From assembly GCA_043809745.1 (NCBI GenBank), contig JBDROU010000032.1:1-64000 (forward strand): a stretch of DNA of 64,000 bases. Reading direction: 5' to 3'. The first letter of the stretch is position 1, and each line of letters begins with the position of its first letter. Below are positions 30,647 to 59,222 of the stretch, one piece after another. Source of the DNA: JBDROU01 sp043809745 [NCBI: bacterium]. Its GTDB lineage: Bacteria > Elusimicrobiota > JBDRMW01. The translations under genes were made by a program, and so were the position numbers. The notes under the pieces were generated by a model that was not told the DNA's origin, did not search any database, and saw only the letters and a program-made list of their open reading frames with translations.

Positions 30647-31723
30647 ATGATAGATTTTATAGAAGTATTGAGAAGAGCAGTAGGCATGGGAGCCTCAGAT
30701 ATTCATATAGTTATTGGGAATCCTCCAATGGTTCGCATACACGGTGAGATGTTGCCAATTCAAGGTTTTCCAATAATTAATTATGAGGAATCGCATAAGG
30801 TAATTTATAGCTTTTTATATGAAAATCAAAGAAAAGAGTTTGAGACTAATCTGGAACTTGATTCATCTCTGAGCATTCCTGACCTTGCAAGATTCCGCGT
30901 TAATGTTTTCAGGCAGAAAAATGGTATAGAGGCTGTACTAAGGGTGATTTCGTCTAAGATTCCGTCTCCGGAAGAGTTAGGATTAACTCCTACAATATTA
31001 CAATTGACAGATCTGCCAAAAGGTTTGGTCCTTGTAACCGGGCCAACTGGATCTGGGAAATCCACTACACTGGCATGCTTGATTGATCAGATTAATTCCA
31101 AAAAAAAGTGCAATATTATAACAATTGAAGATCCGATTGAATATGTATATGAGAATAAAATGTCAACAGTAAGACAGCGTGAAATCGGCAGTCATACTCA
31201 TACATTTAGTGAAGCGCTTAAGAGAGTACTCCGACAGGATCCGGATGTTATTCTAATAGGTGAGATGCGTGATTTAGAAACCATTTCAACTGCTTTGACT
31301 GTTGCTGAAACAGGCCATTTAGCATTTGGGACGCTTCATACTACCGATGCCCCGCAAACGGTTGAACGTATAATCGATGTTTTTCCTCCATATCAGCAGC
31401 AGCAGATCAGAACGCAGTTAGCCGGTGTTTTAGAAGGTGTGATCTCACAGATATTGGTCCCTAAAGCGGATGGGCATGGGGTTGTTGCTGCAAGGGAGAT
31501 CATGATCGTTACGTCAGCTATTTCAAATTTAATAAGAGAAGGGAAAGGACATATGATATATAATGCGTTAGATACCGGTTTAAAATACGGAATGATTTCT
31601 ATGGACAAAAGTTTATTGCAGTTAGTGAAAGACGGAAAGATAAAACCGGAAGTTGCGATATCAAAAGCTACGAATCCGGATTTAATGAAAAATGCTTTGC
31701 ACGGTTCGCCGTCGAAAACATAG
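30647..31723 (+). CDS. pilT: PilT-family twitching motility ATPase
   Basis: This 358-residue secretion/retraction ATPase has a PAS-like N-terminal domain (1-100; DIHIVIGNPPMVRIHGE), Walker A GPTGSGKST near 132-140, an Asp box, Walker B DVILIGEMRD and the His box FGTLHTTDAPQTVERI. PilT powers type IV pilus retraction in the cytoplasm. AAGGAG precedes the ATG. No pilin or other pilus gene is adjacent. It is followed after nine bases by a cyclic-nucleotide-binding protein, which suggests signal-controlled motility. Confidence 0.92.
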   Translation: MIDFIEVLRRAVGMGASDIHIVIGNPPMVRIHGEMLPIQGFPIINYEESHKVIYSFLYENQRKEFETNLELDSSLSIPDLARFRVNVFRQKNGIEAVLRVISSKIPSPEELGLTPTILQLTDLPKGLVLVTGPTGSGKSTTLACLIDQINSKKKCNIITIEDPIEYVYENKMSTVRQREIGSHTHTFSEALKRVLRQDPDVILIGEMRDLETISTALTVAETGHLAFGTLHTTDAPQTVERIIDVFPPYQQQQIRTQLAGVLEGVISQILVPKADGHGVVAAREIMIVTSAISNLIREGKGHMIYNALDTGLKYGMISMDKSLLQLVKDGKIKPEVAISKATNPDLMKNALHGSPSKT

Positions 31724-31732
31724 GAGGAATTA

Positions 31733-32716
31733 ATGGAAGGAATTCCTATAGAAGAACTCAGAAGCTTAGATATTTTTAAGGAAACTAATGAAGAAGTGCT
31801 TAAAGAATTAAGCAAAATTGTTATAAAACAGGAATTTGCTGATAATAGCGAGATTTTTTCAGAAGGCAGTTTAGGGGATACATTTTATATAGTAGCTTCA
31901 GGTGAGGTTATAATAAGAAAAAGGCTTGGTTCAGAACAAAATGCTTACAAGGATCTAAGCTTTTTGGGTCAGGGTGAGTTTTTTGGTGAGTTGTCTCTTA
32001 TCGATACTTTAAAGCGCTCAGCGCAGGCTGTCGCTCATGGAAAAACTTTGGTTTACTGCATTAAGCAGGATGATTTTAAGAAGCTATTATTAGCGTGCCC
32101 CGAAATGGCAGTTGAGCAGCTGTTTAATTTTTTAAGAACAATGAGTCAACGTTTGAGGCTAACAAACAATCATCTAATTGCGATATATGAGGTGGGGCTC
32201 TTAATCTCCAGGGAAAAAGAAGTTGATGTGCTCGCTAAAAAAATACTGTCTCGGATTGTTTCACTTATGGATCCGTCTATTAAAGGTGTTATGGCATTGT
32301 GGAATCCCTTTAATGAAGAATTTGACGTAAAGGCTAAAGTCGGTGGGTTTGATAATGAAGAATCTTTAATAAAAGTAATAACTGACAAGAAATTCCTTGA
32401 TGCATTTGGTAAGAGTGGAGAGAGCGTAGTTGTTAATGAAATTATCAATAATTCGTCATTGTCAGAACATCAAAAAAATGTGTTAGGTGAGTGTGATTCT
32501 CTGCTTTTTTCTCCTATGTTTGATGAAAGCCGGAATATTAGTGGCTTTATTGTTTTATTTAATTCAGAGAAAATGCGGAACTTTAACTCAAACCACAAAA
32601 TTATAGTTTCAACTTTTTCATCGCTTGCTTCACTAGCATTAATAAATGCGGGATATGTGCAGGAAGAAAATTCTAGGAATAGGCTTAACATTGCAAAGGG
32701 GATGAAACATTGGTAA
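31733..32716 (+). CDS. Cyclic nucleotide-binding and GAF domain protein
   Basis: Residues 15-130 of 327 form a cNMP-binding fold with FGELSLIDTLKRSAQ, the phosphate-binding cassette (GE and Arg-x-Ala pattern). Residues 145-315 resemble a GAF domain. There is no helix-turn-helix, so it is not a CRP-type regulator. AGGAGGAA precedes the ATG, and the gene sits between pilT and rsfS. It probably relays a small-molecule signal to the PilT motor or to another protein by contact. Confidence 0.8.
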   Translation: MEGIPIEELRSLDIFKETNEEVLKELSKIVIKQEFADNSEIFSEGSLGDTFYIVASGEVIIRKRLGSEQNAYKDLSFLGQGEFFGELSLIDTLKRSAQAVAHGKTLVYCIKQDDFKKLLLACPEMAVEQLFNFLRTMSQRLRLTNNHLIAIYEVGLLISREKEVDVLAKKILSRIVSLMDPSIKGVMALWNPFNEEFDVKAKVGGFDNEESLIKVITDKKFLDAFGKSGESVVVNEIINNSSLSEHQKNVLGECDSLLFSPMFDESRNISGFIVLFNSEKMRNFNSNHKIIVSTFSSLASLALINAGYVQEENSRNRLNIAKGMKHW

Positions 32717-45895: not shown

Positions 45896-45948
45896 TTTCA
45901 CAAAAATTGCTGATTGTTTTGAGTAATTTTATTTTAAAGGAGGTAAAA

Positions 45949-46311
45949 ATGAAAGGGGAGGAAAAAAGAAGGGAAATCAGAATCTTCGTTTCCTTGCCGG
46001 TAATCTTCCATGGAGAGCAGGATCAATCAGAAAATAGGGGGGATATAATTGATCTGAGCTTAGGCGGGATGAGTTTAAAAACTGGAATCGATCTGAAAGT
46101 GAACGATACGATTAAAGTTAAATTTGAAATCCCGACTGAGATGCGATTTATTTTTTTAGGGAAGATCATTACCAGCAGAGTGGAGAATAGCGAAAAGGTA
46201 TTCGGCGTGAAATTTATAAAGCAAGATCCAGTAGATAGGCTTAACTTGAGTGAGTATATTATGCAAACAAGGTCTGAGCAGGAATTCTGGATAAAAGATA
46301 ATTTCAAATAA
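45949..46311 (+). CDS. PilZ domain protein
   Basis: The 120-residue single-domain protein has the c-di-GMP binding motifs RREIRIFV (RxxxR) and DLSLGGMSLKT (DxSxxG). It probably senses c-di-GMP and acts through a partner. AAAGGAGG lies five bases before the ATG, so translation should be strong. It lies 99 bases before the PilT/DnaA-like operon, which makes that system a plausible target. Confidence 0.85.
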   Translation: MKGEEKRREIRIFVSLPVIFHGEQDQSENRGDIIDLSLGGMSLKTGIDLKVNDTIKVKFEIPTEMRFIFLGKIITSRVENSEKVFGVKFIKQDPVDRLNLSEYIMQTRSEQEFWIKDNFK

Positions 46312-47495: not shown

Positions 47496-48590
47496 ATGAA
47501 TGTAAATGAACTGCTGCAGTTAATGATAAAGAAAGGTATATCAGATATTCATTTTAAGGCTGCTTCTCCGCCCATAATTCGGGTGAATGGAAAACTTATC
47601 GCGACAAACTTCGAAAACTTTACTGCTAAACATATTCATGAGTTAGCGTATAGTATTATGAGCCCTGAGCAGCAGGCTTTATTTGAGAGGGACAATGAGG
47701 TTGATATTTCGTACGCGATAGATGGCGTTTCGCGCTTTAGGGTCAACGTCTACCGTCAAAAAAACACTATAGCGGTTACTTTAAGAGTAGTACCGCTAAA
47801 AATTAAGAGTTTTGAAGATCTTAATATGCCTGTTGAGGTATTGCGTAAGCTATCCGAAGAAACTAGGGGACTTATTCTTGTGGCCGGTATTACAGGCGCG
47901 GGCAAAACAACAACCTTAAATTCGATTATAGATTATATCAATAACCAATTTGCTTATAATATAGTTACTGTTGAAGATCCTATTGAATTCTTCCATCAAG
48001 ATAAAAAATCTACTATTTCACAGAGAGAAATTGGTTCAGATACAAAATCGTTTAAGAGCGCCCTTAAACATGTGCTTCGTCAGGATCCTGATGTGGTTGT
48101 TATTGGAGAGATGCGCGAGTTTGAAGCTATTGCTTCCGGTATAACTGCGGCAGAAACAGGACATCTTGTAATGTCTACAATTCACACTATGGATTCTGTC
48201 CAGACTATAGACAGAATAGTTGATTCTTATCCGCCTCATCAACAGTTGCAGATACGTTTGCAGTTGGCAAATATTCTTAAAGGGGTCATAGGGCAGAGAC
48301 TTCTTATTTCATCTGATGGAGAGATGCGATATCCAGCAACAGAAACCCTAATTTGCACTTCATTGATACGTAAATTAATAGTAGAAGGAAAATCTCAGGA
48401 GATTTACAAAAGTATAGAGCAAGGTGATTATTATGGCATGCACACTTTTGATCAAGATCTGTACCGTCTTTATAAGCAGGGTAAGGTAAATTTAGAGGAA
48501 GCGCTCGAAAATGCAACCAATCCTGATGATTTGATGCTGAAAATCAGAGGGATAGGATCAGAGGCAGGTGTTAATAGTGGCAGTCAGTAA
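47496..48590 (+). CDS. Second PilT/PilU-family ATPase
   Basis: This 364-residue ATPase contains DIHFKAASPPIIRVNGK, Walker A GITGAGKTT near 129-137, Walker B DVVVIGEMRE and the His box MSTIHTMDSVQTIDRIVDSY. It differs clearly from the first PilT in the window. AAGGAGGT precedes the ATG. The stop overlaps the next gene, so it is translated with the disordered/DnaA-like pair, which suggests it is the motor of that system. Confidence 0.9.
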   Translation: MNVNELLQLMIKKGISDIHFKAASPPIIRVNGKLIATNFENFTAKHIHELAYSIMSPEQQALFERDNEVDISYAIDGVSRFRVNVYRQKNTIAVTLRVVPLKIKSFEDLNMPVEVLRKLSEETRGLILVAGITGAGKTTTLNSIIDYINNQFAYNIVTVEDPIEFFHQDKKSTISQREIGSDTKSFKSALKHVLRQDPDVVVIGEMREFEAIASGITAAETGHLVMSTIHTMDSVQTIDRIVDSYPPHQQLQIRLQLANILKGVIGQRLLISSDGEMRYPATETLICTSLIRKLIVEGKSQEIYKSIEQGDYYGMHTFDQDLYRLYKQGKVNLEEALENATNPDDLMLKIRGIGSEAGVNSGSQ

Positions 48591-50427
48591 GTGGAAAATT
48601 GAAAAATATCCAAATGCTAAAAGCCCAAACCAGTGTGTTCTGAAGATTAGGGGTTCTAGGGACGATATCTTGTTCGTATTCAATATGCTCATGCAAGATT
48701 GTGAGGTTCCTTACTCGATACATACTGGAGAGGAATATAATTGGGGTTTAGTTTTTACTGATCCTAAAGGTGAAGTTTCTGAAGAGATAAAGAAGCAATT
48801 GTTAGCTAGAGGCGGGGAAAATAGTGTTAGTCCTGAATCAAAAAGGCAAAAAGAAACTGAAGATTTGAAAAAAATTGAAATAACGGATTACTATGCTGAT
48901 ATAATGGAGGAAAGTGGAAAGTATAAAGTCGAGGGCAATAGCAGGAGTGATAGGTTCCCTCCAATAATCGAAGCAGGTAAAAGTGAGTCAGATGTTTCTA
49001 ATTCGGAAGAGCCAAAATTAAGCAAACCTATTTTGGATAAAACAAAACAGGATAAACCTAAAACATCCTCATCTGAGGAAGAAACTCAGTTAAAGGAGCA
49101 GCATCAAAGGTTAAAGGAAGATATTTATGCGGCTGATCAGAGGCCAAAGGTCGCAAAAGATTTAAATATGGATAAAGAAATATTAGAACCTAAGGAAAAT
49201 GTTCAAGAATATAATCAAGATAAGCTTGCTGAATCTTCGAAAGATCAGAAATGGGTGAACCAGCCGCAAGAGGTTGAAAAAGAAAGAGAGCGGAAAGATA
49301 AAGAAAAAGGTTCTGATTCGGATAAAGTTGAAATGAAGAATCTATTAGACGAGTTGAATGAAGTATTTTCTGACCTTACAAAATCGGAAAGAGATAAGAT
49401 GAGAGAAAAGCTTACATCTGATTTTGATGCTATTTCAAAGGAGCGTAGAAGGAGAAATGTGTTTGGAGAAGAAAGTACTAATTTTGAAAAGGACAAAGGA
49501 GATGTTGATCAAAAACCGCGGCCTTCAAATGAAACTTTACCGCGCGAAGCATTTTCAGAAGATAAATTTGATTCTAAAAGAAATGTATTTGAGATTGAAA
49601 ACAGAGATCATATGCAGACAAGATTAGGCCAAAAAAGAGATAATATTCCGAATAGCATGGAAACGAATTCCAATTTTCCCGACACATCTGATAGATCCGC
49701 TGAATCGTTTGAAGATGATTTTACGAATAAGCAAGTAACGCCTGATGATATGAGTGGTTTTGAAAGCAGGGGAGCTGAAAACAGAAATGAGCAGCCTGAT
49801 GAAGGTCAATCCATAACTGAAGAAGTAAAAAAGGATGCAAAACTCCAAGAGATATTAAGGAATTTTAAACAACAGAAAAAGATGGGAAACACTCAAAAAG
49901 ATCATGGTTCATATGATGCATCTGCTAATCAAGGTGATTCCTATATAGGAAAAGCTCAGCAGCAAGACGAAATAAAACAAAAGCCAGAATATTTTGGAAA
50001 AGAACCGCATGAGCAACCGATGCATGCAGCCCAAAAATTTGAGAGCCCAAGCCCAATCAATATATGCTGTGTTTGTCCTTCAAATGAAAAAAGCGGTTTC
50101 CAATTATTTCAAGAAACAATAGAGGATGTAATAGAAAAAACTACTAAAACTGCTTTTTATTCAAATATTAGTTTGTCGATTGCAATGAATGTGGGAAATC
50201 CAAACATTCAAGGAATTATTGATGAGATAAAAAGTGTTAATGTAGATGTCGTTATCTTAATTGATGAGCCTGCTATATCTAGAGCCGCAATTAATCAATT
50301 AACATTAAGCTTGAGTCAATTAAACATACCCTTTTACTCAATAAGCAAGAGTAAGATTGGTAAAAAGTTTGTATATGTTGATTTGGTAGTGGAATTAATG
50401 CTTAAGAAAAAGAATGTTAGAGAGTAG
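48577..50427 (+). CDS. Disordered linker protein sharing end domains with the DnaA-like ATPase
   Basis: The 616-residue protein falls into three parts. Residues 1-80 form a folded domain with W.IEKYP and a late EYNWGLVF motif. Residues 85-490 are disordered, rich in K, E, D, S and Q. Residues 490-616 form a second folded domain (PINICCVCP, then FQETIEDVIEK and DVVILIDEP). The N-domain matches the start of the next protein. I recognise no family. GTG at 48577 is chosen; GTG at 48568 is possible. Confidence 0.75.
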   Translation: MAVSKWKIEKYPNAKSPNQCVLKIRGSRDDILFVFNMLMQDCEVPYSIHTGEEYNWGLVFTDPKGEVSEEIKKQLLARGGENSVSPESKRQKETEDLKKIEITDYYADIMEESGKYKVEGNSRSDRFPPIIEAGKSESDVSNSEEPKLSKPILDKTKQDKPKTSSSEEETQLKEQHQRLKEDIYAADQRPKVAKDLNMDKEILEPKENVQEYNQDKLAESSKDQKWVNQPQEVEKERERKDKEKGSDSDKVEMKNLLDELNEVFSDLTKSERDKMREKLTSDFDAISKERRRRNVFGEESTNFEKDKGDVDQKPRPSNETLPREAFSEDKFDSKRNVFEIENRDHMQTRLGQKRDNIPNSMETNSNFPDTSDRSAESFEDDFTNKQVTPDDMSGFESRGAENRNEQPDEGQSITEEVKKDAKLQEILRNFKQQKKMGNTQKDHGSYDASANQGDSYIGKAQQQDEIKQKPEYFGKEPHEQPMHAAQKFESPSPINICCVCPSNEKSGFQLFQETIEDVIEKTTKTAFYSNISLSIAMNVGNPNIQGIIDEIKSVNVDVVILIDEPAISRAAINQLTLSLSQLNIPFYSISKSKIGKKFVYVDLVVELMLKKKNVRE

Positions 50428-50455: not shown

Positions 50456-52720
50456 ATGCTAGAACGTTGGGAATTTATACACTTTCCTTGTATGAAAGAT
50501 TCTCAGAGATACAAGCTAAAATTAAAAGCTGATGAAGATAATTTAAGAAAGATCGTAAGAATGCTTTCTGCTAATTCCGGTCGTCCATTTGCTTCGCTCT
50601 CGCATGAGTATAATTGGGGAGTTTATTTTTATAGTATAGATGAGAACGAAAAAAGAAGGATTACTGATACGCTAAAAAGGATTTGTAATCAGGGTAATGT
50701 CAGCCAGTCTGAAGTAATAATGGGGCAGGAACTCCCACCAATGTTCGAGGAGTTTTTAGAAGCTACAGCAAAGGAGTTAAAAGGCAATACAGACACTGTG
50801 GATGGATCATTGCAAATGGAGGAGCTTGGTTCTGCATCTGTGGATAAGAGCTCCGAGGGATCTGCCATAAAAGAAGATAATAACATTATTTCCGGAGACA
50901 AAAATTCTGAAAATGCGGATCAAAATACCCGGATGCAGCCCTCTGTTGAAATATCGGAATTAAATGACCGTGAATCCGAATCAGTGCAAAAGGATGATTG
51001 GTCTATTGGTTCACCGGAAGCCCCGGAGCCAGATAAAATATTGGCAAAAGATGATGAAGCTTCTTTTAAAAACTCAGATTCAAAAGAGACAGCATCTTCA
51101 AAATCTATGGGAAACATTGAAACAAGAACATTTCTTAATAAAAATTATACATTAAACGAATTCGTAGTGGGTTCTAATAATCGTTTTACGCATGCGGCTG
51201 CTAAGGCGGTAGCGGAAAATCCCGGCAAAATTTATAATCCATTATTTATTTATGGAGGAGTTGGATTAGGGAAAACCCATCTGATGCATGCAGTGGGTCA
51301 TTACGTTCTTGAGAAGTCTCCATCTATAAACGTGGTATATGTAACAACTGAGAGGTTTATGAGTGAGGTTATCGAAGCTATTGGCAAAGGCGAGATTCAG
51401 TCCTTTAGAGAAAAATATCGCAGCGTTGATCTGCTGCTTATAGATGATATTCAGTTTTTATCAGAATCTGAATCAACACAGGAAGAGTTTTTCCATACTT
51501 TTAATATGCTGCATGAGAGCGCAAGGCAAATCATTATAACTTCTGATAGGCCTCCAAAACAGTTGAGTACGCTTGAAGATAGACTGCGTTCCCGTTTTGA
51601 ATGGGGATTGATTGCGGATATTAAATCACCGACTTTAGAGACCAGGGTTGCCATATTAAAAAGGAAAAATGAAGGCAGCAATGTATCCTTGGATGATAAT
51701 ATCCTGCTTTATATCGCGTCAAAATTAAAATCAAACATAAGAGAACTCGAAGGTTTCTTAAAAAGAGTAAATGCTTATGCTGCTCTAACCGGGCAGGAGG
51801 TAGATATGGAGTCTGTTAAGTCCATAATGAGAGAGTTGCTGCCGGAAGATGAGATCGAAGAAGAAGATAAAGTTATTAAGGATACTGATATTTTAAGTCA
51901 GGCATTTGCTGAAGGTCCTGCTATGACTCAACAAGAAAATGTACAGGCTAACCCTGCGCCAAAGGGACAACTTCAACCAGAACCATCATTTGTGCATGAA
52001 CCTTTAGTGAATTTTATGGAAGGATTTTCAGCTGGAGAAACAACCCCTTCTTCACCTCAGAACGATCAATATAAATCACCAGAATTGCAGCAGCCAGGAA
52101 CACCTAATTTTCAACAAGATCAACCTTTTACACAGCAACAACAATTTACACCGCCGCCGCCTCCTCCTCCTCAATTTCAGACAATGTCCGCACCGCCGCC
52201 GCCTCCTCCTCCTCCTCAAATGCAGCAGGCGCCAACAATACCGCCTCCGGTACCTGTACAACTGAATTCTGGGAATCCATCTCCAGGATTTGGTGTTGCT
52301 GGTTTAAAAAATGATGGGGTGGATCAGAATCTAGTTCCTATTGAAGTAGCCTTCTTTTATCCAGAGGGTAAGGATAAAGAATTTAGCACAATGAAAGAAA
52401 AATTTAGACAAGTAATTAAAAAACATAAGCTGAAATTTAGATTTGAGAGTATTTTTGAAAGGGGTTACAACTATGGTCAAAAAATTAATTATGCGTTTTT
52501 TACGGAACTATGTAAGACTAACAATGTTAGGATAGTAATATTTCTTGGCGCCCCTCCAAACCAGAATTTTACCAGTGAGGATTCTTCTAATTTGCTTGGG
52601 GCGATGATGGAAGATGACAAAATCTCGATGCAATATGTGCCTTGGAATGAATTGAATAAAGATTATAGGTATCTAAATCTAGCGCTTGATATAACTCTAT
52701 TAAGGAACAAAAAGGTATGA
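50456..52720 (+). CDS. DnaA-type AAA+ ATPase lacking the DnaA DNA-binding domain
   Basis: The 754-residue protein has an N-domain (1-80, EYNWGVYF) like the preceding protein, an acidic linker, then a full DnaA AAA+ module (about 226-465). This has [19 protein letters not shown], Walker A GGVGLGKT (267-274), Walker B LLLIDDIQ (D330-D331), the [10 protein letters not shown] arginine-finger region (R376-R380) and sensor 2 NIRELEG (R429). After it comes a Pro/Gln-rich linker with runs of 7 and 8 prolines and a C-terminal domain (about 620-754). DnaA domain IV is absent, so it cannot bind DnaA boxes in the usual way. The stop overlaps the kinase start (ATGA). Confidence 0.88.
52151..52216 (+). repeat. 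Duplicated proline-codon tract
   Basis: Two tracts of three CCG followed by CCT codons (four CCT at 52151-52171, five at 52193-52216) encode runs of seven and eight prolines in the DnaA-like protein. The tracts are GC-rich against an AT-rich gene and are prone to slippage. Confidence 0.9.
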
Positions 52721-55680
52721 ATGTTTTCGCGAGAGTATCGGTAAGAATTAAGGAGATTATTCGTTTTTGGTTATTATTCACATTTATTTCATTGATAATA
52801 GTTGCTCATTCTCTATTCTGGTTTGTTTTTAACATGAATAGTAATATGAAAGAAGAGATGCGTCCTCTTGTTGAAAAAAGTTTGTCTGTCGGAACCGCTG
52901 CTTTATTTTCAGATAAGAATAATACATCTGGAATATTTGATTTAAAGAAGGAAATTTCCAATTTGGAACAAACTGAATATATAATTTATGTTCATGTGAG
53001 GAATATATTGGGGAAAATTTTAATACCGGGGAAAAAGAATTTTGAAGAGCTGCCTTATTTTTTTAAGGTTAAGTTTCCCATGCAAAAAGAACAAAATGTT
53101 TTGGCTTATCTTGAGATATGGTATGATTATTCTTATGGATTAAAGAAATATTATTCGATGCTATTTCTTGGCTTTATTATTCTGCTGCATATAGCGATTC
53201 TTGTTACTATTGAATTGGCTCTTATTGAGTTAAAAGTATTTCAACCTGTGCGTATAGCTGCAGGGAACATTAATAGGATACTAGATTGGAATTCAGACAG
53301 ATTTGATTCAAAAGGATCATTAAAGGGGATCAAATTATTTGAAGGCAGAGCGACCGAGATTGTTGAAATAATGTCTGAAACTCAGGAAATACTCAATATG
53401 CTTTTTGATATATCCAAAACACTAACTCTAAATTTGGATATTCGTGAAATTCTAGATTCTGTGCTTGATACAATTCAGAAGAAATTTGATTTAATCAGCG
53501 TAGCTATACTTGAAGTTGGGGATGATGGCTATTTAAGAATTAAAAATCACAGAGGCTTTTCCCGTGAATTTGTTCGGACAACAAAAGTAAGATTTGGATC
53601 AGGTGTAATGGGAAAGGTGTATGATACTGTAAGGACAGTAATAATAAATGATATTTCACGTGAAGGAGATTTGTTCACGCAAGAAATGGCCGAACAAGAG
53701 CAAATTCAGTCTGCGCTTTATATCCCTCTTGTCCTTGAACAACAGCCGTTTGGGGTGCTTGTAGTAGCTTCAAGAAATAAGAGCTATTTTGATTACCGCC
53801 GTATCAAAACATTAACCATGATTGCTGAGACATCCTCAATTGCTATGAGGAATGCTCGGCTTTATGAACAACTGCAAAATTTTAATAGACGGTTGGAAGC
53901 AGAGGTTACTTCCACCACGCAGGAGCTTACGCAAACTAATACAAGGCTAATCAAAAAGGTAAGAGAATTAAAAGCGCTCTATGATATAGCCTTTTCAACA
54001 TCAATGCATTTAGATTTAGATCAAGTATTAAGTTTAATTGTAGAGAAAATTCAAGAAATATTAAATGTGGAATGCGTTAGTTTTGCTATTTATAATGAAA
54101 AGAAAAATGAATTGGTGCTAGAGCGAACAATGATTAGAGGAAAATTTGTAAATAATCAGCATAATTTCATCAGAATGATTGATGCCGGTATTTTAACTCA
54201 TGTTTTTAAGGGTGGAAGTCCATACATATCAAACAAGTTATTAAATGAAGAAAACAAGAATTTAGGTTTGCCGAAGGATTATATTCTTAGAACGATTTTG
54301 TCTGTTCCGCTAAAGACCAAATATAAAACAGTAGGGGTGCTGACAGTTGGTAATAAAATAGACTCTCCATTTAATGATGATGATCTTCGCCTGGTACAGG
54401 TACTTTGCAATCAAACTGGAGAAGTTATAGAAAACATAAAATTATATCAGGAAAACAAAAGACGGGTCCAGGATCTTACTACACTTCAAGAGATGTCTTT
54501 TTCAATATCATTAAATAGTTCTCTGCATGACAATCTTAAAAAAATCTGTTCGATAATTGTTAGAGAATTTGAGGCAGATTCTGCTGCATTTTTACTATTT
54601 GATGAAATGTCAAAGGAACTTATAATGGAAAAGGGATCTCATTTGTTGAAAGAAAGTCATTTTGATTATCGTATCAAAGAGGAAAATCAACGTTCATTGT
54701 CTGCAAGCGCATTCCGAATGGGAGAGCCTATATTAATGCCGGTGTATAACCCTCGAAGTACATTCCACGATGTTTTTGAGGAACAGCTTAAGTCTCTGCT
54801 GGTAATACCGCTTAAAATCGAAAATAAGATGATAGGAATATTGCATATGGGCAGTAAAAATGAGCGGTGTTTTGAATTTGAAAAACTGCGTTTGGCCGCT
54901 CTTATAGCGGATCAAACTGCAGTTATTATTGAAAGATCGAAACTGTATGAGGAATTAAATAACGCGGTTAATGAACTTCAGCAAGCAGATAAAATAAAAA
55001 ATGAATTTATTACGCATGTGTCGCATGAACTTAGGATTCCCATAAGTGCCATACAGGGATTTGTAAAAGCGCTCTTAAACAAGGAGACTGGTAAATTAAA
55101 TGAACATCAGAAAAATATACTTCATCTAGCTGAAAAATTTGTGAGCAGATTAAATGTCTTGATAAATGATTTGCTGGATGTCGCGCGTATGCAAAGAGGT
55201 GATATTCAGTTAAAGATGGCACCAAGCGCGATTGGGGGCATAGTGGATGAAGTGATTAAAGAATTAAAGCAGTTGTGGGAAGTTAAGGAACAAAAAATAA
55301 CCGTTCAATCAAATAATAATGTACCTAAGATTATGATTGATTCGAAAAGATTTATACAAGTATTTAAAAATTTAATGCTAAATGCAATTAAATTCACTCC
55401 TCACGGCGGAGATATAATAATAAAAATTGAGCATCAGAATGGCAATGTAATGCTGTGCATAAAGGATAGTGGGATCGGGATTCCAACGGAAGATCAGCCG
55501 TTAGTCTTTAACCAATTTCATCAAATTGATAATCCGGTTCATAAAGAACTTAGAGGGTTTGGAGTGGGATTGTCAATTGCAAAATCTATTATTGAGCTGC
55601 ATAAAGGCAAAATAACTATAAATTCAGAACTAAATAAAGGCGCTGAATTCATTATTACAATACCTCTAAAAGATGAGTAG
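52717..55680 (+). CDS. Membrane-bound triple-GAF sensor histidine kinase
   Basis: The 987-residue kinase has two transmembrane helices (about 14-36 and 145-172) around a periplasmic sensor loop. Three GAF domains follow (about 226-390, 418-580 and 586-745), then HisKA with phospho-acceptor H770 ([13 protein letters not shown]) and a HATPase domain with the N box (NLMLNAIKF), DSGIGIP and [12 protein letters not shown]. No HAMP or receiver domain is seen and no response regulator is adjacent. The ATG overlaps the DnaA-like gene's stop by four bases, so the kinase belongs to this system. Confidence 0.92.
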
Positions 55681-56420: not shown

Positions 56421-57563
56421 ATGAGGAGTAAAACAAGGATACTGATTCTTATATTGCCTTTCCTGATTCTTGCTTGCGCCGGGAACAGGAAACTAACACG
56501 TACTTTTGATGGCCAACCAGGTGAGATTGTGATAGCTGAAGGCATAGCTCCAGTTATTGATGGTGATGTCTTAAATGCGAAGAAGGCTGCCCTTACCGAA
56601 GCTCAGAGAAGGGCTGTAGAGATGGTTGTAGGCGTCTATGTTACTGGAGAAACAAGAGTGGAAAAGGCTGTCTTAATAGAATCTAATATCGTTTCTAAAA
56701 CTAAAGGGTATATTGCCCAATACGATGTTCTTGAAGAAAAAATGCAAGATGGTTTCGTAAAAGTGAAAATAAAGGCACTTGTTAAATTAGAGGATTTGAG
56801 TAAGGATTTGAAGGAGCTGGGCTTAATTGTTAAGCCAAGTGAAGTAGGAAATCCTAAAACAGCTGTTTTAATAAAGGAATCTTTAGATGGAAAAGATCAA
56901 ACTTCTTCTGAAGCTGAATCAATGATTATACAGGAGCTTGTTAATAAGGGGTATTCAGTGGTTGAATCATCAAATCTTTCAGCAGAGGAGATAAAAGGTG
57001 TTTCAGCTGGGGAGGAGAGCTTCTATAAAAAACTCGCAGATAGATTGAAGGTTGAAGTTCTTGTGGTAGGAAAAGCAGTAAGTTCATTCTTTACAAGTGA
57101 GAATTTGGGAGGATTTGTATCTTATCGCGCTTCCATTTCTGCCAGGGTGTTAAAAGCTCAAACCGGGGAGGTGCTAATTAGCGTGTCTCAACAGGCAAGC
57201 GGTGTTGATGTTGTTAAGCAGATAGCGGGTGAAAAAGCTCTTCAAAAGGTAGGACAGCTTGTTGGAAAGGAGTTATCTGTAAAAATTGCCCAGAAATTAA
57301 AAACGCATTCAGATATTGTGCTTACAATTAAGGATTTAAGTACAGTCAACGAACTTAACGAAATTACCAATTATTTAAGAAGAACAGCATATATAAAAGA
57401 ATTAGTTATTAGCAGTTTTTCGTCAAATGAAGCTACGATCGATGTTCGCTTAAGTTCAGGTGATACCCAAAAGCTGGCCCAAACTTTGGGGAATATTCCT
57501 GGAAAGACATTCACAACTATTTCGTTGAGTAAATACCTGCTTTCGGTAAAAATTGAAAACTAA
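56421..57563 (+). CDS. FlgT/LPP20-like lipoprotein
   Basis: The 380-residue lipoprotein (lipobox ILAC, Cys19) has EGIAPVIDGDVLNAKKAALT and AVEMVVGVYVTGETRVEKAV followed by SKTKGYIAQYDVL, which matches the N-terminal domain of FlgT, an outer-membrane flagellar T-ring protein. A middle CsgG-like region follows (170-300), then a small C-terminal repeat. No flagellar genes are near, so it probably serves another envelope complex. Confidence 0.75.
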   Translation: MRSKTRILILILPFLILACAGNRKLTRTFDGQPGEIVIAEGIAPVIDGDVLNAKKAALTEAQRRAVEMVVGVYVTGETRVEKAVLIESNIVSKTKGYIAQYDVLEEKMQDGFVKVKIKALVKLEDLSKDLKELGLIVKPSEVGNPKTAVLIKESLDGKDQTSSEAESMIIQELVNKGYSVVESSNLSAEEIKGVSAGEESFYKKLADRLKVEVLVVGKAVSSFFTSENLGGFVSYRASISARVLKAQTGEVLISVSQQASGVDVVKQIAGEKALQKVGQLVGKELSVKIAQKLKTHSDIVLTIKDLSTVNELNEITNYLRRTAYIKELVISSFSSNEATIDVRLSSGDTQKLAQTLGNIPGKTFTTISLSKYLLSVKIEN

Positions 57564-57569
57564 ATATAT

Positions 57570-58205
57570 ATGTGTAAATGGCGATTTTTTCTGTTACTCC
57601 TTTTTGGCAGCGCGGTTATTAGCTGCGCCATTAACCCAAAATACATAACAGATGATTTTCATCCACCGAGGACTGTTGCCCTTTTACCGGTTGCTAATCA
57701 AAGTAACGATCTTAATGCTCCTGAACTTGTCAGGAAGCTTATGTTGGAAGTATTGGTAAGCAAGGGTTATGAAGTAAAACCGTTGGATACAACTGATGAG
57801 ATTTTAAAAAAAAACGGTATAAGTGAAGGTGGTCAGTTAAACGCGGTAACACCTGAAAAACTTGGGAAAGAGCTTGATGTCGGCGGACTTTTTTATGGAG
57901 AGATCATTGAATATAATTTCATCAATGTAGGGGTGTATAGAAACAGGGTTGTGGAAATAGATTATAAGTTAGTTGATCCTCAAACAGGAAAGATGCTTTG
58001 GGAGGATCAGAGGAAGGTTTCCAACAAGCAGTTTGAGTTTGATCAGGACAAAATGGTTAAATCTTTAGCGCTGGGATTGGCTGAAAAAGTTATCGAAAAT
58101 CTTATTTCGTCTCCGTTATTGCCTGAATGCAAGGCGGTAATAAATAAGATTGCGCGCACTCTGCCTCAAGTCTATGGAGATAGTTCTGGCCTAAGCGGTT
58201 ATTAA
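57570..58205 (+). CDS. GNA1162/DUF799-like lipoprotein
   Basis: The 211-residue lipoprotein has a signal peptide ending VISC (Cys19) and the body motif PPRTVALLPVANQSND, then VGGLFYGEIIEYN, as in Neisseria GNA1162 (DUF799) proteins. These adopt a TolB/CsgG-like fold and occur beside CsgG and LPP20-type genes. It starts seven bases after the previous stop. Confidence 0.78.
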   Translation: MCKWRFFLLLLFGSAVISCAINPKYITDDFHPPRTVALLPVANQSNDLNAPELVRKLMLEVLVSKGYEVKPLDTTDEILKKNGISEGGQLNAVTPEKLGKELDVGGLFYGEIIEYNFINVGVYRNRVVEIDYKLVDPQTGKMLWEDQRKVSNKQFEFDQDKMVKSLALGLAEKVIENLISSPLLPECKAVINKIARTLPQVYGDSSGLSGY

Positions 58206-58295
58206 GAAAGGCTGTAAAAGAAGAGTTTTTAATAGGAGAAAGCGTAATAAGTAAAGAACAGATCCAGCAGTAACAAAAAAAGAAAGGAGTAGTGT

Positions 58296-59222
58296 ATGTT
58301 AAAAAAATTTTTTGCAGTGAGTCTGATGGGTTGTTTTGTTATTATAGGCTGTGCTCCTTCAACATCAATTAAACAAAGGCAATCAACAACAGTAGAAGAA
58401 ACCAAACACCTTAGAAGCGAGCATACAGGTCCAAAAAGAAGGGTGGGCGTTATCGATTTTGAAAACAAGACAACATATGGCGCTCGATTAGGGCAATCTG
58501 CTACAGACATACTTATTACAGAGTTGGTAAAGACCAACCGTTTTATTGTTGTTGAAAGGGATAAAATGAATAAACTGCTTGAAGAACAAAAGCTTGGATT
58601 AACTGGCGTGATAAATCCAAATACCGTTGCTAAAGCAGGGAAACTGCTCGGGTTAAACGCAATAATAACAGGAAGTATATCTCAGTTTGGCGCTAAAAAG
58701 GAAGGATCGGATTATCTGATTACTCAGAGCAAAAGGCAGATAGTTGAGGCAACAGTAGATATTCGTGTAGTAGATGTTGAAACTGGTCAAATCCTATATG
58801 CGGATTCAGGAAAAGGTGTTGTCAAAAAAGGTTCCGGCAAAGTTCTTGGAATGGGAACAAAGAGTAGTTATGACGAAACACTTGAAGGGGAAGCATTGAG
58901 AGCTGCAATTGTAAAGTTTGTGGACAATATAGTTTCGCAAATCAGCGCAAGGCCTTGGTCATGTCGAGTCGCGATGGTTAAGGATTCGAGCATCTATTTA
59001 AATGCAGGCATTTTATCTGGGTTAAAGCCAAACACAGTGCTGATTGCTTATCATTTAGGCGAGGAGATTATAGATCCAACCACAGGGATTTCACTCGGTA
59101 ATACTGAAGAGGAAATTGGGAGTTTGAAAATAGAAAGAAATTTTGGTGAAGATGGATCCATTGCAAAGTTGGTAGCTGGACAGATGCCGTCCAGCAACGA
59201 TATTTGCAGATTAAAGCAATAA
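58296..59222 (+). CDS. CsgG-family outer-membrane lipoprotein
   Basis: The 308-residue lipoprotein (lipobox IIGC, Cys19) has the CsgG fold (45-215): RVGVIDFENKTTYGARLGQ, ATDILITELVKTNRFIVVER and AIITGSISQFG. CsgG forms a nine-fold secretion pore for curli. Here there is no curlin. A C-terminal beta domain (225-308) is extra. AAGAAAGGAG precedes the ATG. It closes the four-gene lipoprotein operon. Confidence 0.85.
   Translation: MLKKFFAVSLMGCFVIIGCAPSTSIKQRQSTTVEETKHLRSEHTGPKRRVGVIDFENKTTYGARLGQSATDILITELVKTNRFIVVERDKMNKLLEEQKLGLTGVINPNTVAKAGKLLGLNAIITGSISQFGAKKEGSDYLITQSKRQIVEATVDIRVVDVETGQILYADSGKGVVKKGSGKVLGMGTKSSYDETLEGEALRAAIVKFVDNIVSQISARPWSCRVAMVKDSSIYLNAGILSGLKPNTVLIAYHLGEEIIDPTTGISLGNTEEEIGSLKIERNFGEDGSIAKLVAGQMPSSNDICRLKQ

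What the first reader, a model, noticed from the sequence alone, without database searches (positions are those of the whole stretch)
50456..52720. DnaA-type AAA+ motor without DNA-binding domain IV, re-used in a new architecture
The AAA+ core is close to real DnaA ([52 protein letters not shown]). The helix-turn-helix domain IV is replaced by a Pro/Gln linker and an unknown C-terminal domain, and a novel domain precedes it. All catalytic and arginine-finger residues remain, so ATP-driven assembly is likely but oriC binding is not. It is embedded with PilT and a kinase. I know of no described system with this design.
Basis: partly seen in the sequence, partly recalled or inferred. Interest (0 to 1): 0.88.

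Follow-up and report, generated by a model that had tools for sequence, protein, structure and literature searches.

The report
Pilus-linked DnaA paralogue without DNA-binding domain
A copy of the bacterial replication starter DnaA has lost its DNA-reading domain, gained two new domains, and usually sits in an operon with its own type IV pilus retraction motor, which suggests that a replication switch was recruited to control pili.

Summary
Confirmed. The 754-aa protein at 50456-52720 is a DnaA domain III (residues 224-466; ATPase and arginine-finger residues present) between an N and a C domain that match no known family; domains I and IV are absent. It is not a one-off: its C domain is found in 242 of 340 genomes of one phylum (Elusimicrobiota, inferred from record titles), and not credibly in samples of three others. 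A separate dnaA with domains I and IV was found in all 28 carrier genomes checked; the window's own genome is not held. The family splits from canonical DnaA on a 99-100% (SH-aLRT) branch. Two origin-DNA contacts (B. subtilis N187, K222) are lost; in a derived sub-clade most others and the arginine finger go too, while Walker A and B stay. A distinct PilT paralogue lies just upstream in 26 of 33 testable main-clade loci, but in only 2 of 9 derived-clade stretches. All 242 carrier genomes encode PilT; none of 52 PilT-less genomes carries the family. Best reading: a neofunctionalised DnaA paralogue, an ATP switch or scaffold regulating type IV pili through its own PilT (inferred, not shown). TIGR00362 passes its cutoff, so pipelines may mislabel it dnaA.

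The parts
50456..52720 (+). DnaA-derived AAA+ protein, 754 aa (N domain, linker, DnaA domain III, P/Q linker, C domain)
50456..50710 (+). N-terminal domain, residues 1-85, predicted beta-beta-alpha-beta-alpha-beta; no Pfam family
50711..51124 (+). linker rich in Glu, Ser and Asp, residues 86-223
51125..51853 (+). DnaA domain III AAA+ core, residues 224-466
51254..51277 (+). Walker A GGVGLGKT, residues 267-274
   Evidence: K273 and T274 in 35 of 35 family rows
51467..51469 (+). S338 codon, equivalent of B. subtilis DnaA K222 / E. coli K243: DNA-contacting lysine lost (0 of 35 K/R in family)
51593..51595 (+). R380 codon, equivalent of the arginine finger (B. subtilis R264, E. coli R285), retained 35 of 35 in the main clade
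51854..52327 (+). Pro/Gln-rich linker, residues 467-624
52328..52717 (+). C-terminal domain, residues 625-754, predicted alpha/beta fold resembling Argonaute/Piwi MID domains
47496..48590 (+). PilT paralogue of the clade that accompanies the DnaA-like gene
48568..50427 (+). partner protein, up to 619 aa (start codon uncertain), same N-domain family and a long charged linker; resemblance of its C-terminal part to the C domain is only by alignment (21% identity) and not significant
   Evidence: 6e-06; N domain 9.9e-08
52717..55680 (+). GAFx3 sensor histidine kinase (membrane-anchored by reading of its N-terminus); start overlaps the DnaA-like stop by 4 bases
45907..46311 (+). PilZ-domain protein upstream (possible c-di-GMP link)
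   Evidence: PF07238 6.1e-12

Best explanation
A neofunctionalised paralogue of DnaA. Either a protein with this N domain and C domain acquired a DnaA domain III in its middle, or a DnaA lost domains I and IV and gained the two flanks. The product no longer initiates replication. It is an ATP-binding switch or scaffold that acts with its neighbours, a dedicated PilT paralogue and a partner carrying the same N domain, to control type IV pilus retraction or placement, probably under the GAF sensor kinase. In the main clade, ATP binding plus the intact arginine finger would let it form DnaA-like filaments or rings whose N and C domains recruit or gate pilus-motor parts; in the derived clade only the ATP-binding motifs (Walker A and B) are kept. 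Shown: architecture, absence of domains I and IV, residue conservation, gene linkage, PilT co-occurrence, separation from canonical DnaA. Inferred: the pilus function, ATP-dependent assembly, contact with PilT, control by the kinase.
For: PilT lies 1-3 genes upstream on the same strand in 26 of 35 main-clade loci; 2 of the other 9 are cut by the contig end. The 30 linked PilTs form one side of a 100% (SH-aLRT) branch against 20 unlinked PilTs of carrier genomes plus the window's second PilT. Over 340 genomes: family and PilT 242, family without PilT 0, PilT without family 46, neither 52 (Fisher p 2.4e-34, not corrected for relatedness). Window genes overlap or nearly abut: PilT and the longest reading of the partner overlap 23 bases, 28 bases separate partner and DnaA-like gene, 4-base overlap with the kinase. 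In 36 carrier genomes the N-domain profile gives 46 matches in 33 genomes, 43 of them on the contig of the DnaA-like gene (my count); in the genome of L002 one such protein carries GGDEF, in line with signalling. DNA contacts N187 (kept in 3 of 35) and K222 (K/R in 0 of 35) are lost against 101 and 92 of 103 canonical rows, while Walker A lysine, both Walker B aspartates, sensor 2 and arginine finger are 35 of 35. 28 carrier genomes checked have a separate dnaA with domains I and IV.
Against: No experiment and no evidence of physical contact. 7 of 33 testable main-clade loci have no PilT within three genes upstream. In the deep derived clade the linkage is weak: of 10 loci PilT is seen in the stretch read for 2 (L194, L199), not for 7 (L180, L181, L182, L184-L187), and 1 (L198) is cut short. 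46 PilT-positive genomes lack the family. A paper states that all isolates of the phylum are non-motile (passage of PMC11257099), so twitching is not an established trait. ISM residues I190, R202 and E228 remain in the main clade, so single-strand DNA binding is weakened, not excluded; in the phylum's own canonical DnaAs K222 is basic in only 19 of 28, so that position alone is not decisive. Co-occurrence is not corrected for shared ancestry or MAG incompleteness. The neighbourhood also holds housekeeping genes, so linkage alone is not functional proof.
Confidence: 0.45

Rival explanations
1. An Hda-like regulator of replication: the DnaA-like AAA+ domain docks on canonical DnaA through the AAA+ interface (its arginine finger in trans) and promotes ATP hydrolysis or blocks oriC assembly, coupling replication to surface or pilus state.
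For: DnaA-type AAA+ without domain IV and with an intact arginine finger in the main clade; Hda_lid (PF22688) weakly matches 20 of 35 members; E. coli Hda has arginine at the aligned finger position.
Against: TIGR03420 scores 107.6 against a cutoff of 194.8. A clamp motif of the QLxLP[LF] type (recalled) is in 0 of 35. The arginine finger is R in only 3 of 10 deep derived members. Hda_lid also matches 18 of 28 canonical DnaAs, so it does not discriminate. Frequent neighbours are PilT and a sensor kinase.
Confidence: 0.15
2. A DNA-uptake factor: after pilus retraction the protein handles incoming single-stranded DNA in the cytoplasm, using the remaining ISM groove of domain III and the MID-like C domain.
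For: PilT-powered pili mediate DNA uptake in a wide variety of prokaryotes (start of the abstract of PMC5142622 in the listing). I190, R202 and E228 equivalents, part of base capture in B. subtilis, are kept in 34-35 of 35 in the main clade. The C-domain model resembles Argonaute MID domains, Z 14.1, rmsd 2.4, 119 aligned.
Against: N187 and K222 contacts are lost, and in the deep derived clade R202 and I190 equivalents are 0 of 10. No sequence-level relation of the C domain to Argonaute (0 PDB sequences with E up to 1); other alpha/beta folds such as lumazine synthase match nearly as well in Foldseek; the 5'-phosphate pocket residues of Argonaute, compared from memory only, are not apparent.
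Confidence: 0.12
3. A duplicated but still replication-acting DnaA, for example a domain IV-less initiator that co-assembles on canonical DnaA filaments at oriC.
For: TIGR00362 equivalog cutoff is passed; arginine finger 35 of 35 and box VII arginine 33 of 35 in the main clade.
Against: Domains I and IV absent, two DNA contacts changed, 99-100% split from canonical DnaA, PilT linkage.
Confidence: 0.08
4. Linkage to PilT is an old accident of gene order; the protein serves another cytoplasmic signalling role with the GAF kinase.
For: The kinase family is the next gene downstream in 20 of 35 main-clade loci and also beside derived-clade members with no PilT in the stretch read (L182, L184, L185, L186).
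Against: No carrier genome without PilT, 242 of 242; the linked PilTs form their own clade.
Confidence: 0.2

Closest known systems
DnaA, chromosomal replication initiator (TIGR00362; domains I-IV)
   Same: domain III AAA+ core, 52-61% identical over the matched segment in the 77 best other hits; Walker A, B, sensor 2, arginine finger
   Different: no domain I (PF11638) and no domain IV (PF08299) match, N187 and K222 contacts lost, two unrelated flanking domains, PilT-linked, separate branch
Hda (DnaA regulatory inactivator, TIGR03420)
   Same: DnaA-derived AAA+ without domain IV
   Different: below the TIGR03420 cutoff, no clamp-binding motif of the recalled type, extra N and C domains, PilT-linked
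DnaC/DnaI helicase loaders and IstB
   Same: related AAA+ proteins without domain IV; Pfam IstB_IS21 passes its gathering score here (39.4 against 24.1), as it does for a canonical DnaA
   Different: far below the NCBIfam cutoffs for DnaC, DnaI and IstB; different flanking domains
PilT/PilU retraction ATPases (TIGR01420), as partner
   Same: the gene two upstream is a full PilT-family ATPase
   Different: it lies on the other side of a 100% branch from the 20 unlinked carrier PilTs and the window's second PilT
Argonaute/Piwi MID domain (fold of the C domain)
   Same: predicted fold, Z 14.1, rmsd 2.4, 119 aligned
   Different: 8-12% identity in the rows shown, no PIWI or PAZ match in Pfam, no sequence-profile match

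Membership tests
DnaA replication initiator | DnaA-type AAA+ domain III with Walker A/B, sensor 2, arginine finger | tested here: met
   present in this protein and in 35 of 35 main-clade rows
DnaA replication initiator | domain IV helix-turn-helix (PF08299) | tested here: not met
   no match in this protein; 28 of 28 canonical DnaAs match in a like scan
DnaA replication initiator | domain I (PF11638) | tested here: not met
   no match; 28 of 28 canonical match
DnaA replication initiator | initiator-specific motif DNA contacts (B. subtilis N187, I190, R202, K222, E228) | tested here: inconclusive
   N187 and K222 equivalents lost; I190, R202, E228 equivalents kept
DnaA replication initiator | binding to DnaA boxes and oriC opening | not testable with these tools
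   needs protein
Hda | TIGR03420 equivalog score | tested here: not met
   107.6 bits against 194.8
Hda | clamp-binding motif QLxLP[LF] (recalled) | tested here: not met
   0 of 35
Hda | stimulates DnaA-ATP hydrolysis | not testable with these tools
   needs protein
Argonaute MID domain (C domain) | MID fold | tested here: inconclusive
   the 50 rows shown are all Argonaute/Piwi, Z 12.0-14.1; lumazine synthase and other alpha/beta folds also reach E below 1e-3
Argonaute MID domain (C domain) | sequence-profile relation to Argonautes of the PDB | tested here: not met
   profile of 34 C domains, no PDB sequence at E up to 1
PilT (neighbour 47496-48590) | TIGR01420 score over cutoff | tested here: met
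   447.8 against 319.1 bits

The most novel reading that the evidence does not exclude
Much of a bacterial phylum uses a DnaA-derived AAA+ filament as the cytoplasmic control unit of a second type IV pilus retraction motor: the ATP-bound protein polymerises as an initiator does on oriC, but on protein instead of DNA, displaying its N and C domains to gate PilT. To my knowledge it would be the first case of the replication initiator's motor recruited to a cell-surface machine.
Probability: 0.22. Interest if true: 0.9.

Novelty: new variant of a known kind. Interest (0 to 1): 0.77.

Why it matters
DnaA is regarded as a replication protein, and its known relatives without domain IV (Hda, more distantly DnaC/DnaI; recalled) also act in replication. 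A widespread, usually single-copy paralogue (242 of 340 genomes of a phylum) tied to its own PilT would show that the initiator motor can be moved to another machine. It would give Elusimicrobiota a testable pilus regulator, and it offers a natural series in which DNA contacts and then the arginine finger erode while ATP-binding motifs stay. Practically, the gene passes the DnaA equivalog cutoff, so annotation pipelines may report two dnaA genes.

Tried and rejected
Rejected: hidden domain IV. Rejected: chance ORF or misassembly (same architecture in L001, L002 and L003; many more). Rejected as main reading: Hda orthologue. Not rejected: sister position to the phylum's own canonical DnaA (p-AU 0.246). 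Led nowhere: Pfam on the C and N domains, 34 and 28 rows (scattered matches, best E 0.0024 and 0.0039, none shared by more than 3 members); PDB sequence profiles; Foldseek on the N domain (best E 0.017) and VIA (best Z 7.5 to archaeal aIF1, in the range of common arrangements); Rfam and tRNA scans of the window (nothing); promoter/terminator scan (38 against 39.7 and 9 against 6.8 in shuffles). Papers: listings (4 papers; 1; 7; 25; 10 of 38 shown; 7; 12 of 792 shown); from titles and abstract starts none describes such a protein, but the papers were not read apart from those named in the report. One search lists DnaA-like proteins of Rickettsia plasmids, a lead I did not follow. The careful (bootstrap) AAA+ tree was not finished; quick trees are reported.

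Rows dropped or limits before counts: of 37 loci read for the main clade, L147 and L149 gave no called ORF over the score cut and are not in the 35. The 35 carrier genomes were picked by me from its listing, by score. In the 242 the full architecture was not checked in each; of 20 further stretches read, 16 show AAA+ and C domain in one ORF, 2 are fragments at contig ends, 1 is a 253-aa C-domain protein without AAA+ (L188) and in 1 (L197) no such ORF was called. Of 105 loci taken as canonical DnaA 103 gave a match; domain IV was checked for 28 of them. The AAA+ trees used a third of the canonical rows from other phyla. In one search, 10 of the 13 divergent rows of the tree were used. The PilT tree holds one unlinked PilT, the best-scoring one, from each of 20 genomes, although carriers hold up to 6 PilT-family matches. 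In one search only 25 of 48 families are shown; PF08299 and PF11638 are not among them, and the last ones shown have two members, so a match in one or two members is not excluded.

Full report
What is there. The ORF at 50456-52720(+) encodes 754 aa. Residues 224-466 are DnaA domain III: PF00308 at 2.1e-72, TIGR00362 at 375 bits, over its cutoff of 343.9 but covering only model positions 71-343 of 437, and B. subtilis DnaA at 6.5e-92. Pfam IstB_IS21 and AAA also pass their gathering scores here, and IstB_IS21 does so in a canonical DnaA too. The protein matches neither DnaA domain I (PF11638) nor domain IV (PF08299). A 138-residue Glu/Ser-rich linker and a 158-residue Pro/Gln-rich linker join the core to an N domain (1-85) and a C domain (625-754).

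The flanking domains. The N domain is predicted with mean pLDDT 92.9 from 6 sequences and has no Foldseek match with E at or below 0.001 (best 0.017). The C domain is predicted with mean pLDDT 86.7 from 7 sequences. All 50 rows shown by VIA for it are Argonaute/Piwi chains aligned at their MID region, best Z 14.1, rmsd 2.4, 119 aligned, 11% identity. Foldseek ranks MID domains first (4.4e-5), but lumazine synthases follow at 2.0e-4, so I read this as a MID-like alpha/beta fold, not as Argonaute kinship; a profile of 34 C domains finds no PDB sequence with E up to 1. Pfam gives only scattered weak matches for 34 C domains and 28 N domains.

Relatives. One scan of the species-genome collection returned three loci with the same architecture (L001, L002, L003; 46-49% identity to the window). 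The other 77 loci are DnaA matches of 52-61% identity; of these I read one in full (L065, canonical though cut at its start). With the full-length profile I picked 35 of 294 genomes of that phylum as strong carriers. A C-domain profile of 34 rows found 79 of 340. Of 20 further stretches read, 16 show AAA+ and C domain in one ORF, several of them very divergent. A broadened C-domain profile found 242 of 340 at E 1e-3, mostly one match each; the full architecture was not checked in each of the 242. Outside: 0 of 237 (narrow profile) and 0 of 126 (broad profile) in the phylum of an Omnitrophota MAG, 0 of 129 in that of an Acidobacteria MAG, and 1 of 128 in that of a Deltaproteobacteria MAG, a 53-residue piece with two stops that I take as chance; 0 of 9 single genomes.

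Variation of the architecture. Of 35 called main-clade proteins 28 carry N domain, AAA+ and C domain; 6 (L145, L146, L150, L151, L153, L154) have no detected N domain, and L152 (398 aa) neither flank. In L146, L150, L151 and L152 the gene just upstream carries the N domain instead, which supports the idea that partner and DnaA-like protein share one module.

A separate canonical dnaA. G001, G002 and G003 each hold two clear PF00308 genes (G002 a third, weak one, 27.1 bits) and one PF08299 match, in the 456-459 aa gene. Of 28 canonical DnaAs from 28 carrier genomes, 28 have PF00308, PF08299 and PF11638; of the 35 DnaA-like proteins 35 have PF00308, and neither PF08299 nor PF11638 is among the 25 of 48 families shown. 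The window's own genome is not held, so for it the second dnaA is an expectation, not a result.

Residues. B. subtilis number = query minus 116 (from the alignment). Of the B. subtilis contacts described in PMC10721633 (section 9 read; other passages), K222 (phosphate contact) is S, A, V or G in 35 of 35 members and K or R in 92 of 103 canonical rows; N187 (base contact) is kept in 3 of 35 against 101 of 103; I190 is kept in 34 of 35, R202 in 35 of 35, E228 in 35 of 35. Among the 28 canonical DnaAs of the same phylum K222 is basic in 19, so this position alone is not decisive. The paper itself says that none of the base-capture residues it names is universally conserved. Walker A lysine, both Walker B aspartates, sensor 2 arginine and the arginine finger (B. 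subtilis R264, E. coli R285) are 35 of 35; the box VII arginine (E. coli R281) is 33 of 35. In 10 deep divergent members the Walker A lysine and both Walker B aspartates are 10 of 10, but box VII arginine is 0 of 10, the arginine finger R in 3 of 10, sensor 2 arginine 1 of 10, I190 0 of 10, R202 0 of 10; alignment of such divergent rows carries some error.

Descent. In a quick maximum-likelihood tree of 103 AAA+ domains, 48 DnaA-like rows fall on one side of a 100% (SH-aLRT) branch together with E. coli Hda (a very long branch), and 54 canonical DnaAs on the other; canonical Elusimicrobiota form one group at 95%. Without Hda and the 10 most divergent rows the split stands at 99%. A sister relation to the phylum's own canonical DnaA is not rejected (p-AU 0.246), so a duplication inside the phylum remains possible. 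The deep divergent rows join the family beside FAM_L143 at 92%, not a starred value, with long branches.

Neighbourhood. Gene order is similar in many loci: tpi, rpiB, deoC, TPR protein, lipoprotein, PilT, a partner protein, the DnaA-like gene, GAF kinase, response regulator, transketolase halves (tpi, rpiB, deoC and lipoprotein are my reading of the sequences; PilT, kinase, TPR, PilZ, transketolase, GGDEF and response regulator come). PilT lies within three genes upstream on the same strand in 26 of 35 loci; two of the rest are cut by contig ends, seven have none. The kinase family follows directly in 20 of 35; three have no downstream gene and twelve have another one. In the deep derived clade PilT is in the stretch read for 2 of 10 loci, absent for 7, and one stretch is too short. 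In 36 carrier genomes the N-domain profile gives 46 matches in 33 genomes, 43 on the contig of the DnaA-like gene. In the genome of L002 one N-domain protein carries GGDEF, and the window has a PilZ protein a few genes upstream, which hints at c-di-GMP.

A dedicated PilT. In a quick tree of 51 PilTs the 30 linked copies form one side of a 100% branch; 20 unlinked copies (the best-scoring one of each of 20 carrier genomes) and the window's other PilT (30647-31723) form the other. Across 340 genomes the family was not seen without PilT: 242 with both, 0 with family only, 46 with PilT only, 52 with neither (Fisher p 2.4e-34). By my reading, 22 of the 46 PilT-only genomes but 9 of the 242 carriers hold a single PilT match. 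Caveats: related genomes are not independent, completeness is not told, and the 20 PilT-less genomes listed (of 52) are small, 0.6-1.3 Mb.

How it most likely works. The family keeps the ATP site and, in its main clade, the trans arginine that drives DnaA assembly, but has lost the DNA-reading domain and part of the DNA grip. It is bound to a specific PilT by gene order in the main clade and to PilT in general by genome content. The simplest account is an ATP-dependent switch or scaffold for pilus retraction or placement, perhaps set by the GAF kinase. I hold the pilus role at somewhat under even odds. Passages of PMC11257099 (not read in full) state that pilins are the only appendages encoded by Endomicrobiaceae, that flagella are absent from the phylum, and that all its isolates are non-motile. 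The first points fit a lineage whose surface machine is the pilus; the last speaks against simple twitching and leaves adhesion, DNA uptake or surface sensing. I found no description of such a protein in the listings; the library lacks most subscription journals, and two of those listings were cut.

Verdict. New here: the protein is widespread in a phylum, forms its own branch, has lost two origin-DNA contacts, was found only in genomes with PilT, and in its main clade usually comes with its own PilT. I class it as a new variant of a known kind (DnaA-type AAA+ without domain IV, as in Hda) in a setting for which I know no precedent.

Noticed in passing
window 30647-31723: A second PilT-family gene in the same window (PilT-like by clustering and tree), on the other side of the PilT tree, followed by a protein with a cyclic-nucleotide-binding domain at 31733-32716 (PF00027).
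   Followed up: partly
window 56421-59222: Lipoprotein-like genes downstream of the kinase: a weak FlgT_N match (below its cutoff), a GNA1162-like and a CsgG family protein.
   Followed up: no
L121 6051-7484 (L002 6328-7761): The same N domain fused to a GGDEF domain, just upstream of PilT: possible c-di-GMP input to the same complex.
   Followed up: partly
L141 8971-11739: A family member of 922 aa with two N domains in tandem.
   Followed up: no
G002:C164:8293-8748 (L087): A third, weak PF00308 match (27.1 bits, open frame 316 aa) besides the canonical and the pilus-linked copy.
   Followed up: no
L188 5137-5898: A 253-aa protein with the C domain (2.4e-31) but no AAA+ core, in a genome that also holds a full member (G172).
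   Followed up: no
window 217-21668: Genes that look like surface sugar or polysaccharide synthesis (aminotransferases, NeuB-like, flippase-like) by reading of translations only.
   Followed up: no
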